NCBI RefSeq assembly: GCF_017094505.1
Contig: NZ_CP064787.1
Location: forward strand, 2,790,001-2,854,000
Reading direction: 5' to 3'
DNA length: 64,000 nucleotides
Origin: Halapricum desulfuricans
GTDB taxonomy: Archaea; Halobacteriota; Halobacteria; Halobacteriales; Haloarculaceae
In this document: one piece after another, positions 51,484 to 56,717 of the stretch
How positions within the stretch are numbered: position 1 is the first letter of the stretch
Layout of the letters: each line of letters starts with the position of its first letter
The notes under the pieces: model-generated
The model's input: the letters and a program-made list of their open reading frames with translations, nothing else
Database searches by the model: none
Told to the model about the DNA's origin: nothing
Position numbers and translations under genes: made by a program

Positions 51484-52053
51484 TTACTCGCGTCGGGCGA
51501 AGATTCGGTATTTGAGGTCGGTCTCTTCGATCTCTTCGATGATGCGCTCGACGAGCACGTCTTTCGGGTCGTGGAGGCCGTTGACTCGCGCCTCGATGTC
51601 CTCGAAGTTCTCGAACGGGCGGCGTTTGCGCGCCTCGAGAACGTTGTTGCGCAGCTTCTTGCCGATCCCCGGCAGGAGGTTCAGCGCGTGCAGCCGCGTC
51701 GTGATCGGCTGGGCGTCGTTGTAGAACTCGACGAACCTGTCCTCGTCCGCGTCGACGACGTCCTCGATCGCGTACGCCAGTTCGGACCGCGCGCCGCCCG
51801 GGAGGTCCTCGTACTCGATCTCGCGGGCGCGCTCGACGCCGTCGCCGCGCTCGACGGGCAGGCGATCGCCGATCGAGATGTCGGCGTCCTCGGAGAGCGC
51901 GAGTTCGAACAGCCGGAACTCCCCGACCGAGACGGCGTACGCCAGCGGCTCTTTCTCGTACTGAGGCCGCTCGTCGTCCGAGCGCCCGTGCGGCAGGAAA
52001 TCGAGGACGACTGCGATGGGGGCGCTCGACTCGTCGCGGTTACCGGTGGTCAT
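51484..52053 (-). CDS. DUF655 family protein
   Basis: A 189-residue protein. An OB-like beta part (APIAVVLDFLPHGRS; SVGEFRLFELAL; GDRLPV) and a helix-hairpin-helix region ALNLLPGIGKKLRNNVLEAR fit DUF655, a nucleic-acid-binding family conserved in archaea. It usually stands between rpoF and rsmA; here it still precedes rsmA (1-bp gap) but rpoF is about 2.6 kb away. ATG 52053 is chosen, as upstream residues are unlike the family. Confidence 0.9.
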   Translation of the reverse strand: MTTGNRDESSAPIAVVLDFLPHGRSDDERPQYEKEPLAYAVSVGEFRLFELALSEDADISIGDRLPVERGDGVERAREIEYEDLPGGARSELAYAIEDVVDADEDRFVEFYNDAQPITTRLHALNLLPGIGKKLRNNVLEARKRRPFENFEDIEARVNGLHDPKDVLVERIIEEIEETDLKYRIFARRE

Positions 52054-52094: not shown

Positions 52095-53099
52095 TCACCG
52101 CTCGTGGGACTCGATCGCCGTCCTGGTTCGCTCGTCGACTCGTACGATGTGACACAGCGGGTTGCCGGGATAGACGACGGGGTTCTCCAGCACGCCGACC
52201 AGCACCCCGTCGAACGGTGCCTCGACAGCGGTAGTGGACGTCTTGAAGGGGTTTGCGATCGTCGCGATCCGCTCGCCCGCCTCGACGAACGCCCCTCGCT
52301 CGACGCGGACGTCCACCAGCCCGCCCGCGTCGGCCCGCAACCAGGTCTTCTCGCCGGCGTCTTCGACCACTGTCCGCCAGCCCGGCCAGTGGACGTGGGC
52401 GCTCTCAAGGAGTCCGAACTCCGCGAAGACCGACCGGACGCCGTCGAGCGCCCGGTCGATGAGCGATCGCTGGAAGCGGTGAGCCTCGCCCATCTCGACG
52501 GTGATCGTCGACGTTCCGGCGGCCGTCGCCTCGCGCCGGAGCGTCCCCTCGGCCCCCTCGCTGTCGATGATAACGTTCGAGGCGAAGGCCCTGGCGACCC
52601 GCTCGACGGTCTCATCGCCCATGTCCGCCCGGACGTGCAGCATGTTCGACCGCCCGCGAGTCGAGGTGTGCAGGTCGATCCCCAGGTCGGCGGGCGCGAC
52701 GAAGTTCTCGAAGATCCGGGCGGCCATCCGCTGTGCGCCGGTCCCGGTTCTGTCGCCGGGAAACGCCCGGTTGAGGTCGCGGTCGTATATCGGCAGGTAT
52801 CGCTGCTGGGCGATGAACCCCGGGACGTTGAGGATCGGCAGGCAAACGAGCCGGCCGCGAAGCCCCGAGAGGTCCCACTCGTGGGCGACCTCCCGGACGA
52901 CCTCGATACCGTTGAGTTCGTCGCCGTGCGTCGCCGCCGTGACGACGACTGTCGGCCCGGGCCGCTCGCCGACCACGATCGTCACGGGCATTTTGACTCG
53001 ATCGCCCAGATACGTCTCGCTGACGGTGTACCGGACGTTCTGGGTCTCCCCTGGATCGACCCGCCCACCGTCGTAGGTGAACGGCTCCGGTTGTGCCAT
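52095..53099 (-). CDS. Succinylglutamate desuccinylase/aspartoacylase-like protein
   Basis: A 334-residue zinc carboxypeptidase-fold (M14-like) enzyme: TAATHGDELNGIE with zinc His and Glu, DRDLNRAFPG and the second zinc His in LGIDLHTSTRGR, followed by GEAHRFQRSLID, and a barrel C-terminus. Members cleave N-acyl amino acids or, in RimK-linked cases, trim amino acids added by RimK. It is divergent from a RimK fusion gene with 127 bp between. Precise substrate unknown. Confidence 0.9.
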   Translation of the reverse strand: MAQPEPFTYDGGRVDPGETQNVRYTVSETYLGDRVKMPVTIVVGERPGPTVVVTAATHGDELNGIEVVREVAHEWDLSGLRGRLVCLPILNVPGFIAQQRYLPIYDRDLNRAFPGDRTGTGAQRMAARIFENFVAPADLGIDLHTSTRGRSNMLHVRADMGDETVERVARAFASNVIIDSEGAEGTLRREATAAGTSTITVEMGEAHRFQRSLIDRALDGVRSVFAEFGLLESAHVHWPGWRTVVEDAGEKTWLRADAGGLVDVRVERGAFVEAGERIATIANPFKTSTTAVEAPFDGVLVGVLENPVVYPGNPLCHIVRVDERTRTAIESHER

Positions 53100-53226
53100 A
53101 CCTACGAGACGCGGGGAACGGTGAAACGTGTGCCGGCCGGGAGCGTCCGATCGGGCCGTCCCTCCGGCCGCGCGTCCGGACCGCCGTCGCCAGAGCGTTC
53201 TTTACCGGGGATCACGCATATAGGCT

Positions 53227-54591
53227 ATGACCGCGTCGACTCCCGTCACCGTCGGAGTGCTCAGTCTCCACAACAGCAAGGAGACCAAGGCGATCTGCAA
53301 CGCCGTCGAGGCGCTGGGTCACGAGCCCGCGTGGCTCCGCCGAGAGAACACGGAAGTAGAGGTCTCCGACGGTGAGGTGACGCTCCGACCGGACGTCGAC
53401 GTCGTCGTCAACCGGCTGTTGCTCTCGAAGTCGACCGAGCCCTGCGAGGAACTCGGCCTGGCCCGGACGGTCGCGCAGTTGCGCCCGACGCTGAACGACC
53501 CCGCCGCGACGCTGACGGCGATGCACAAGGTCGCGACGGCCGCTGCGCTGGCACGGTCGGACATCCCCGTTCCGGACGCGCTACTGGCCTTGGAGTCCGA
53601 GCGGCTCAACGCCCGGCTGGCGGCCACCGGGTCCGAAGCCGTCTACAAGACCGCTATCGGGACCAACGGCGGCGGGACCTGGAAGGTCGGCCCCGGCGAG
53701 CGCGTCAACGCCCGCGTCGGCAACCGCTACGCGTTCCTCCAGTCGCTGATCGAACGCGACCCCGGCGAGCGGGCCCGCGACCTCCGAGTGTACGTCGTCG
53801 GCGACCGGGTCGTCGGCTCGATGTTCCGCTACGCGCCGGAAAACGACTGGCGGACCAACGTCGCGCTCGGTGGCGAAGTCGAGAACGCAGGGGAGGAGAT
53901 TCCCGAATCAGTTCGGGACATCGCTCTCCGGGCCACTGACGCCGTCGGGCTGGACTACGCCGGCGTCGACCTCGTCGAGGGCGAGGACGGCTGGCTCGTC
54001 CTCGAGGTCAACCCCACGGCGGGGTTCAAGGGCCTCTACGAAGCGACCGGGATCAGCCCCGCGCCGTACATCGCCGCCCACGCCGTCGAGGCGGCCGGCG
54101 GCGCCGTCGCGGACGACCGCGTCGCTGAACTGGCGACCGTCCTCGACGACTCGGTGCCGGACTGTCGGCCCAGCGCCGCGCCGACCAGCGCCCGCGAGCC
54201 ACAGTCGATCGGCTACATCGAGGACGTCATCGTCAGCGGGACCGGCGGGTCGGAGACCGTCCTCGCGAAATCTGACACGGGAGCGACCCGGACCAGCATC
54301 GACACCGGTCTCGCCGCCGAGATCGGGGCCGGCCCGATCAAGTCGATCACGCGGGTCAAGTCCGGCAGCCGGAAAGTCTCGAAGAGCCGTCCGGTCGTCG
54401 ACCTCGTCGTCGCCGTCGGCGGGAGTCGCCACACCGTCACCGCCAGCGTCGAAGACCGCAGCCACATGCAGTACCCCGTGTTACTCGGCCGCGACATCCT
54501 CCAGCACTACCGCGTCGACGTCTCTCGACGAGCCGACACGGACGGCGAAGACGAGGACAACGAAGAAGAAGAGGCAAGCGTCGAGGAGTGA
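53227..54591 (+). CDS. RimK-type ATP-grasp ligase fused to a retropepsin-like (RimB) domain
   Basis: A 454-residue fusion. Residues 1 to about 290 form an ATP-grasp amino-acid ligase (VLSLHNSKETKAI, KTAIGTNGGGTWKV, GDRVVGSMFRYAPENDWRTN, LVLEVNPTAGFKGLYEATG). About 325-435 is the ATP-dependent zinc-protease/RimB domain with aspartic-protease-like KSDTGATRTSIDT and LLGRDILQHYRVDV. An acidic tail ends it. RimK adds glutamates to proteins such as ribosomal S6; RimB domains trim them. The neighbouring aspartoacylase is often linked to this system in bacteria. Target unknown. Confidence 0.88.
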   Translation: MTASTPVTVGVLSLHNSKETKAICNAVEALGHEPAWLRRENTEVEVSDGEVTLRPDVDVVVNRLLLSKSTEPCEELGLARTVAQLRPTLNDPAATLTAMHKVATAAALARSDIPVPDALLALESERLNARLAATGSEAVYKTAIGTNGGGTWKVGPGERVNARVGNRYAFLQSLIERDPGERARDLRVYVVGDRVVGSMFRYAPENDWRTNVALGGEVENAGEEIPESVRDIALRATDAVGLDYAGVDLVEGEDGWLVLEVNPTAGFKGLYEATGISPAPYIAAHAVEAAGGAVADDRVAELATVLDDSVPDCRPSAAPTSAREPQSIGYIEDVIVSGTGGSETVLAKSDTGATRTSIDTGLAAEIGAGPIKSITRVKSGSRKVSKSRPVVDLVVAVGGSRHTVTASVEDRSHMQYPVLLGRDILQHYRVDVSRRADTDGEDEDNEEEEASVEE

Positions 54592-54648: not shown

Positions 54649-55005
54649 TCAGGCGTATTTCGCGACGACGTTGAGGATGTCGTCGAGTTCGTCGCCCGAC
54701 AGCGAATAGCGTTCCTGAGCGAACACGGCCCGCAGTTCGTCCCGGTCCTGCGGCAGGAGGTTGGCGATCTTGTACGCGGTGGCCTCGTCGACTTTCTCCA
54801 GGTCCTGCAGTTCGGCGACGAACTCCTGAGACTCTTCGATGTCGAGTGTCGCGAAGCGATTGACGTGTTCGATGGCCCGCGTGAGTTCGTAGCGCATCTC
54901 ACGGTCCTCGTCGAGCGCGCGCTCGCGTTCGATGTCCTCGAGGACGTCCTTGGCCTCGGCGAGCGTCAGGTACTCCTCCTCGAGTTTCTCCTTGAATATG
55001 GTCAT
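54649..55005 (-). CDS. rpo4: RNA polymerase subunit Rpo4 (Rpb4/RpoF)
   Basis: A 118-residue protein with TIFKEKLEEEYLTLAEAKDVL, ALDEDREMRYELTRAIEHV, FVAELQDLEKVDEATAYKIA and ALRAVFAQERYSL-like end segments (DELRAVFAQERYSLSGDEL). It forms the polymerase stalk with Rpo7. It lies 3 bp after rpl21e in the same direction. Confidence 0.95.
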   Translation of the reverse strand: MTIFKEKLEEEYLTLAEAKDVLEDIERERALDEDREMRYELTRAIEHVNRFATLDIEESQEFVAELQDLEKVDEATAYKIANLLPQDRDELRAVFAQERYSLSGDELDDILNVVAKYA

Positions 55006-56392: not shown

Positions 56393-56397
56393 TCGGT

Positions 56398-56717
56398 GAT
56401 TCTCGCTCCCTGCGGTCGCTCCGAATTTCCCTGCCGCGGGTCACGCTGTTCCCCGCTCTCTTCTCGGAGATTCTCGCTCCCTGCGGTCGCTCCGAATTTC
56501 CCTGCCGCGGGTCACGCTGTTCCCCGCTCTCTTCTCGGAGATTCTCGCTCCCTGCGGTCGCTCCGAATCTCCCTGCCGCGGGTCACTCTGTTCCCCGCTC
56601 TCTTCTCGGAGATTCTCGCTCCCTGCGGTCGCTCCGAATCTCCCTGCCGCGGGTCACTCTGTTCCCCGCTCTCTTCTCGGAGATTCTCGCTCCCTGCGGT
56701 CGCTCCGAATCTCCCTA
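56398..56717. repeat. 71-bp tandem repeat, four full copies and a partial fifth
   Basis: Unit begins GATTCTCGCTCCCTGCGGTC; copies start at 56398, 56469, 56540, 56611 and 56682, exactly 71 bp apart. Copies 1-2 carry AATTTCC and TCACGCTG; copies 3-4 carry AATCTCC and TCACTCTG, so the array has two blocks. Each unit junction gives an inverted repeat GGAGATTC/GAATCTCC enclosing GCTCCCTGCGGTCGC. The last partial copy ends at the carA stop codon. A period of 71 is not a multiple of three and no frame looks real. It fills the 322-bp gap between dtxR and carA. Confidence 0.95.

What the first reader, a model, noticed from the sequence alone, without database searches (positions are those of the whole stretch)
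52095..54591. RimK-RimB fusion and aspartoacylase-like gene inserted in the Rpo4-DUF655-RsmA cluster
In many haloarchaea rpl21e, rpo4, DUF655 and rsmA run without a gap. Here a divergent pair, an aspartoacylase-like enzyme and a RimK ATP-grasp ligase fused to a retropepsin-like domain, separates rpo4 from DUF655. In bacteria these three protein kinds form a known modification cassette. The fusion plus neighbour suggests that an amino-acid tag is added and removed by one system, perhaps on ribosomal or polymerase proteins made next door.
Basis: partly seen in the sequence, partly recalled or inferred. Interest (0 to 1): 0.6.

Follow-up and report, generated by a model that had tools for sequence, protein, structure and literature searches.

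The report
Haloarchaeal glutamate ligase-protease fusion with partner
A salt-loving archaeon carries one protein that looks able both to add and to cut glutamate chains, and whose own tail ends in the very residue such enzymes extend; it travels with a partner hydrolase, and its place beside ribosome genes here is a recent accident.

Summary
A RimK-type ATP-grasp ligase fused to a C-terminal retropepsin domain (FUS, 53227-54591 +) and a divergent AstE/AspA-type hydrolase (ASPA, 52095-53099 -) separate rpo4 from DUF655. Both are intact. The insertion is real but genus-specific: 5 of 5 genomes of the window's genus have it, while rpo4 and DUF655 touch in 19 of 20 other genomes fetched. In other haloarchaea the pair usually sits beside sdhCDBA, so the ribosomal/polymerase neighbourhood says nothing about substrates. 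The classical RimK substrate, bS6, is absent from this genome. FUS occurs in 268 of 292 Halobacteria; all 24 genomes without it were checked, and 21 also lack ASPA (56 of 56 FUS-positive genomes tested have it). Methanogens and bacteria carry the same three parts as separate adjacent genes. New here: the FUS C-terminus, after a disordered linker of variable length, ends in Glu-Glu in 83% of unique orthologue tails (background 1.9%), never Asp. RimK and ArgX both ligate glutamate onto a protein's C-terminal Glu, and retropepsin relatives cleave poly-Glu. Best reading: a ligase-protease unit that extends and trims Glu tails, its own tail being the likely acceptor, with ASPA finishing the removal. 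Activity is untested.

The parts
53227..54591 (+). FUS: RimK-type ATP-grasp ligase domain (about residues 7-292) fused to a C-terminal retropepsin-like domain (about 326-432) and a disordered acidic tail
53245..54102 (+). ligase domain, residues 7-292; R63, R187, R201, R209, E260, N262 invariant in alignment A3
54202..54522 (+). retropepsin-like domain, residues about 326-432; D350-T-G-A invariant in A3; K348, R388, R411 match RloA poly-Glu contacts K46, R114, R137
54535..54588 (+). C-terminal tail (residues 437-454, pLDDT under 50) ending in Glu-Glu; the terminal Glu-Glu is conserved across the family
52095..53099 (-). ASPA: succinylglutamate desuccinylase/aspartoacylase-family hydrolase; candidate zinc ligands H58, E61, H144 and catalytic E202 invariant (roles assigned from recalled family motif)
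53100..53226 (.). 127-bp divergent intergenic region shared by ASPA and FUS
51484..52053 (-). DUF655 (PF04919), flank of the insertion
54649..55005 (-). rpo4 (Rpb4 family), other flank of the insertion

Best explanation
FUS and ASPA are one two-gene unit that builds and removes glutamate tails. The RimK-type domain uses ATP to ligate glutamate onto a protein C-terminal glutamate; the fused retropepsin domain cuts or trims the resulting poly-Glu; ASPA, a zinc hydrolase of the AstE/AspA family, clears the last residues or a related acyl-amino bond. The enzyme's own conserved Glu-Glu tail is its most likely first acceptor, so the protein would be self-glutamylating. Shown: architecture, conserved catalytic and poly-Glu-contact positions, co-inheritance with ASPA, the Glu-Glu terminus. 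Inferred: every catalytic step, the linkage (alpha or gamma), the identity of substrates and the order of action. The rpo4-DUF655 location is a lineage-specific move with no bearing on function.
For: Ligase: TIGR00768 RimK family alpha-L-glutamate ligase above cut-off (151 vs 143.4 bits); the model matches LysX/ArgX-LysW and RimK structures at Z 27.1-29.0, enzymes that act on a C-terminal Glu of a protein. Five of seven RimK poly-Glu contacts kept (against residues named). G269 with L/F at 270 lines up with the Gly-Phe of glutamate-specific ArgX. Protease: DTGA invariant in 35 of 35; K348, R388, R411 align with RloA poly-Glu contacts. Tail: 113 of 135 full FUS end EE and 125 of 135 end E; 83% of 89 unique orthologue tails end EE against 1.9% of 1167 background tails and 1.8% of 111 ASPA tails, with Asp at 0% in the last two places; 37 of 38 genera all end in E, 30 of 38 all in EE. 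The 5 of 98 unique tails without a terminal Glu all have a run of 5 or more Glu, against 11 of 93 others. Unit: 21 of 24 FUS-less genomes lack ASPA, 0 of 56 FUS-positive ones do (Fisher 2e-16, not corrected for descent). Separate-gene cassettes.
Against: No activity was measured. Two RimK poly-Glu contacts are replaced (R8 to L14, S14 to E19) and the E. coli H215/R216 pair is lost; by HMM score the domain is nearer LysX/MptN than E. coli RimK (125.5 and 123.9 vs 67.4 bits), so the amino acid and linkage may differ. The bacterial RimB-RimK hybrid, of opposite order, cut poly-Glu but did not glutamylate RpsF (PMC11957791). Three genomes keep ASPA without a full FUS (G110, G168, G184). The Glu-Glu tail could instead be an inhibitory pseudo-substrate. 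The ASPA model is weak (pLDDT 66) and its substrate is open.
Confidence: 0.5

Rival explanations
1. The Glu-Glu tail is not an acceptor but a built-in pseudo-substrate: it sits in the positively charged retropepsin channel or in the ligase site and keeps the enzyme off until a real poly-Glu substrate displaces it.
For: The tail is disordered and follows the retropepsin domain directly; basic poly-Glu contacts are conserved; a retropepsin relative recognises Glu and not Asp (PMC11957791 Table 1), matching the Glu-only terminus.
Against: Inhibition would not obviously need the very last two residues to be Glu while the tail varies in length from 15 to 36 residues; RimB needs about 5-6 contiguous Glu, and 32 of 93 E-ending unique tails have a longest run of only 2.
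Confidence: 0.2
2. The pair makes and breaks a small N-acyl peptide, such as an N-acyl-Asp/Glu dipeptide osmolyte: the ligase joins Glu to an N-acyl amino acid and ASPA deacylates it, as mammalian RIMKLA and ASPA do with N-acetylaspartate (recalled).
For: ASPA is nearest DoeB, an N-acetyl-diaminobutanoate deacetylase of ectoine breakdown (94.6 bits, below cut-off 402.7); the family acts on N-acyl amino acids (recalled); the pair usually lies beside succinate dehydrogenase genes.
Against: Does not need a retropepsin domain with intact DTGA and poly-Glu contacts or a Glu-Glu tail.
Confidence: 0.2
3. One reading: the system tags ribosomal or RNA polymerase proteins encoded next door.
For: Physical adjacency in five genomes of one genus; bacterial RimK modifies a ribosomal protein (PMC7343187 and PMC11957791, passages).
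Against: The pair is elsewhere in the other 51 genomes tested that have both genes; no bS6 in the genome.
Confidence: 0.07

Closest known systems
RimB/RimK (RimABK) of Pseudomonas
   Same: Poly-Glu ligase paired with a retropepsin-like poly-Glu protease; DTG motif and basic contacts kept
   Different: Separate proteins; substrate RpsF, which this genome lacks; no aspartoacylase partner described in the passages read; the bacterial RimK proteins read here end TRGKG or similar, not EE
Bacterial RimBK hybrid (Desulfotalea DP2392; here Aureibacter and Thioclava)
   Same: Same two domain types in one chain; protease activity on poly-Glu shown for DP2392 (PMC11957791)
   Different: Opposite order (RimB first; Aureibacter), no ASPA within the 3-4 kb flanks shown, and the one C-terminus read does not end in Glu (Aureibacter)
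RloA/RloC of Pseudomonas aeruginosa
   Same: RloA retropepsin cleaves poly-Glu and is genetically tied to an ATP-grasp protein (PMC12239564)
   Different: RloA is secreted and separate; the operon has the membrane protein RloB and no aspartoacylase in the passages read
ArgX/LysX with LysW/ArgW
   Same: Best structural match of the ligase domain; acceptor is a protein C-terminal Glu (PMC10433800)
   Different: Acceptor is a separate zinc carrier ending EDWGE; no fused protease; serves Arg/Lys biosynthesis
RimB-RimK-ASPA gene cassette of methanogens and bacteria
   Same: Same three parts side by side
   Different: Unfused genes on one strand; methanogen ASPA 32-36% identical to the window's

Membership tests
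RimK family alpha-L-glutamate ligase (TIGR00768) | Score above the curated cut-off | tested here: met
   151 vs 143.4 bits
RimK proper (ribosomal S6 ligase, PRK10446) | Score above the curated cut-off | tested here: not met
   67.4 vs 331 bits
RimK proper (ribosomal S6 ligase, PRK10446) | bS6 substrate present in the genome | tested here: not met
   PF01250: 0 hits in own genome, found in 10 of 14 control genomes
RimK proper (ribosomal S6 ligase, PRK10446) | Seven poly-Glu contact residues | tested here: inconclusive
   5 of 7 kept in the window protein; R8 and S14 replaced
RimB/RloA retropepsin (PF05618) | Score above the curated cut-off and intact DTG | tested here: met
   42.1 vs 27 bits; DTGA in 35 of 35
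RimB/RloA retropepsin (PF05618) | Conserved basic poly-Glu contacts | tested here: met
   K348, R388, R411 align with RloA K46, R114, R137
RimB/RloA retropepsin (PF05618) | Cleaves poly-Glu | not testable with these tools
   needs enzyme assay
RimB/RloA retropepsin (PF05618) | Fold match to a solved retropepsin-like structure | tested here: inconclusive
   no such row among those listed; the ligase domain fills the list
Bacterial RimBK hybrid | Retropepsin domain N-terminal to RimK | tested here: not met
   order is reversed (bacterial order)
ArgX/LysX equivalog (TIGR02144) | Score above the curated cut-off | tested here: not met
   125.5 vs 275.6 bits
AstE/AspA family (PF24827) | Score above the curated cut-off | tested here: met
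   155.6 vs 25 bits
DoeB deacetylase (TIGR02994) | Score above the curated cut-off | tested here: not met
   94.6 vs 402.7 bits

The most novel reading that the evidence does not exclude
FUS is a self-priming poly-glutamate synthase: its own encoded Glu-Glu C-terminus is the acceptor that its ligase domain extends, and the retropepsin domain just before the tail cuts the chain loose or resets it. A single polypeptide would then hold writer, eraser and substrate of a protein modification, used across haloarchaea in the absence of bS6, with ASPA recycling the product.
Probability: 0.33. Interest if true: 0.78.

Novelty: new variant of a known kind. Interest (0 to 1): 0.55.

Why it matters
RimK-type ligases occur in organisms that lack the only well-studied RimK protein substrate, and what they do there is open. 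A ligase-protease hybrid in most haloarchaea, co-lost with a hydrolase and carrying a Glu-Glu terminus of its own, turns this into a direct test: measure the mass of one protein's C-terminus in wild type and mutants. If the tail is extended, it would be a self-acting poly-glutamylation switch in archaea and a compact relative of the writer/eraser pairs known from tubulin and RpsF.

Tried and rejected
Neighbourhood as a clue to substrate: rejected, since the rpo4-DUF655 site is confined to one genus. Link to succinate dehydrogenase: 34 of 45 non-genus loci fetched have sdhC next to ASPA, but in all 5 genomes of the window's genus the pair moved together without sdh and part of the named loci (Halorubrum) show other neighbours, so I treat sdh as ancestral position, not function. 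Shine-Dalgarno explanation of the terminal GAG-GAG codons: rejected, because EE is kept where the downstream gene is convergent (17 of 19 loci with AlkA convergent within 700 bp; 5 of 7 co-directional) and in the five genus genomes with convergent rpo4. General acidity of haloarchaeal tails: rejected by the background control and by the absence of Asp. First ORF calling was poor for this G+C content and was replaced by a codon-position score. One search read only 37 of 76 loci by a file-naming mistake and was repeated. Weak PF05618 hits in methanogens (14 loci, L148-L161) showed no RimB-like DTGA protein and were set aside. VIA-align rows cover only the ligase domain; no retropepsin structure was listed, which excludes nothing. 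ASPA was not fold-searched, its model being weak. Of 135 full-length frames I later dropped L133 (a frame running out of a FUS remnant); still include it. L039 and L083/G258 are the same genome, so a few sequences are counted twice in the raw totals; unique-tail and per-genus counts avoid most of this. Papers: PMC11957791 read as abstract, outline, section 7 and passages; PMC12239564, PMC10092738, PMC7343187, PMC8305020, PMC10433800, PMC11237513 as passages; the rest as listings. I recall a 2009 survey by Iyer and colleagues of ATP-grasp amidoligases that may already describe RimK-retropepsin-aspartoacylase neighbourhoods; it was not held and not seen.

Full report
What is there. The frame at 53227-54591 (+) encodes 454 residues with a RimK ATP-grasp domain and a C-terminal retropepsin-like domain. 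The frame at 52095-53099 (-) is an AstE/AspA-family hydrolase of 334 residues. They diverge from a 127-bp spacer and separate rpo4 from DUF655. The AlphaFold model of the fusion is good (mean pLDDT 84.4, pTM 0.72) except for residues 321-324 and the tail 437-454. Its ligase part matches LysX, ArgX and RimK structures about equally, Z 27.1-29.0 at 2.1-2.6 A for the nine best rows.

Is the insertion real, and how old. DUF655 and rpo4 are neighbours, 42-228 bp apart, in 19 of 20 genomes fetched from outside the genus. The pair stands next to DUF655 in all 5 genomes of the window's genus (nearest named relative Halapricum hydrolyticum, 86% identity) and in none of 51 others that carry both genes among the 80 searched. 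In 34 of 45 other loci fetched ASPA lies next to sdhC, and in the window's genus sdhC is far from the pair in 5 of 5. The simplest history is that the divergent pair moved as a block from the sdh region into the rpo4-DUF655 gap in an ancestor of this genus. Adjacency to ribosomal genes is therefore no guide to substrates.

Is it one unit. FUS is found at E <= 1e-100 in 268 of 292 Halobacteria genomes (count). I took all 24 without it and 56 with it. ASPA orthologues (E < 1e-90) are present in 56 of 56 FUS-positive genomes and absent from 21 of 24 FUS-negative ones. In seven genera (g5, g8, g15, g19, g32, g34, g37) some members keep both and others have lost both, so co-loss happened repeatedly. 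The three exceptions keep ASPA; in two (G110, G184) a FUS remnant sits beside it. Fisher's test gives 2e-16 but ignores descent, and the sample was chosen to hold every FUS-negative genome. FUS and ASPA are divergent neighbours within 4 kb in 46 of 49 loci. Some assemblies are incomplete, so single absences may be false.

Relatives beyond haloarchaea. In a sample of 294 genomes of the phylum, 89 have a PF05618 match; the 47 halobacterial ones lie in frames of 445 codons or more, the 42 others in frames of 305 or less. So the fusion is haloarchaeal in this sample. Of 16 strong methanogen places I fetched six; all six read RimB, RimK, ASPA in a row on one strand, ASPA being 32-36% identical to the window's. 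Annotated bacterial plasmids show the same three genes together in Salinivibrio proteolyticus and Acaryochloris, and as RimK-ASPA-RimB in Vibrio nigripulchritudo. Known bacterial hybrids have the protease first: Desulfotalea DP2392 in print (PMC11957791), Aureibacter here. The haloarchaeal order is the reverse, so the fusion probably arose separately.

Catalytic equipment. DTGA is invariant in 35 of 35 homologues. Three basic residues reported to contact poly-Glu in RloA and conserved in RimB, K46, R114 and R137 (PMC12239564), align with K348, R388 and R411 (PDB chain 9g58_A numbering is the paper's minus 20, which I infer because all three fit), and all three are invariant in alignment A3. 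In the ligase, five of seven RimK poly-Glu contacts are kept, two are not (residues). G269 with L or F after it aligns with the Gly-Phe pair that gives ArgX its taste for glutamate. Candidate zinc ligands of ASPA (H58, E61, H144) and a Glu at 202 are invariant in 47 of 47; their roles are recalled, not tested.

The tail. After the last domain motif GRDIL the proteins run on for 15-36 residues of variable sequence, disordered in the model, yet stop on Glu-Glu. Of 135 full frames 125 end in E and 113 in EE. For 89 unique orthologue tails the figures are 93% and 83%; for 1167 other proteins of the same loci 16% and 1.9%; for 111 ASPA tails 17% and 1.8%. Asp, not much rarer than Glu at background termini, is never found in the last two places of the orthologues. 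Over 50 genomes of 38 genera, all members end in E in 37 genera and in EE in 30; three stop codons and both Glu codons are used. Even paralogues below 60% identity end in EE in 57% of 14. The five unique tails without a final Glu all hold a run of five or more Glu, against 11 of 93 others; three of the five are Haladaptatus, so this is weak. Methanogen and bacterial RimK and a bacterial hybrid do not end in EE.

What it means. The known members of this ligase group act on a C-terminal Glu: RimK on RpsF, whose last five residues are GDSEE in E. coli and DNADE in P. fluorescens, and ArgX on ArgW ending EDWGE. RimB cuts runs of Glu and not of Asp. A protein that holds both domain types and keeps a Glu-Glu terminus by selection is most simply read as acting on itself, at least as a first acceptor. 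That is inference. The tail might instead inhibit the enzyme, and the chemistry might be that of a small N-acyl peptide. The classical substrate bS6 has no match in this genome, while the same search finds it in 10 of 14 controls.

Novelty. Searches of the open library for RimK with retropepsin, RimB, haloarchaea, archaeal glutamylation, Haloferax with these enzymes, and self-glutamylation showed no description of the haloarchaeal fusion, its partner or its tail; an archaeal fusion survey does not mention RimK in its main text, nor does a Haloferax annotation review. Subscription papers are not covered. I rate it a new variant of a known kind.

Noticed in passing
window 56393-56716: Tandem array of a 71-bp unit, 4.6 copies, 98% matches, just downstream of the DtxR-like repressor gene; function unknown.
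   Followed up: no
L139, L065, L066, L074, L137, L138, L141, L193, L194: A second FUS-like clade about 48-59% identical, often on plasmids; in L193 and L194 universal stress protein genes lie nearby, and in L139 its own ASPA paralogue. Eight of 14 such sequences end in EE.
   Followed up: partly
L188 (Vibrio nigripulchritudo plasmid): RimK, aspartoacylase-like, RimB-like and a mechanosensitive channel gene run together on a conjugative plasmid; L187 also has a mechanosensitive channel gene nearby.
   Followed up: no
L132 (genome G110): FUS remnant in which roughly the first 65-85 residues run in frame into the C-terminal tail, still ending EE, beside an intact ASPA.
   Followed up: partly
L167 (genome G117): The only one of 20 control genomes without rpo4 found next to DUF655 within the 7 kb fetched.
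   Followed up: no
L006, L007, L009, L012, L057: In several genera extra genes lie between ASPA and FUS, a GNAT-like and a membrane-protein-like one among them (named by eye, not by a family search).
   Followed up: no
L148-L161: Weak PF05618 matches in methanogens and other archaea fall on short proteins (mostly 170-220 codons) with no DTGA; probably another family caught by the profile.
   Followed up: partly
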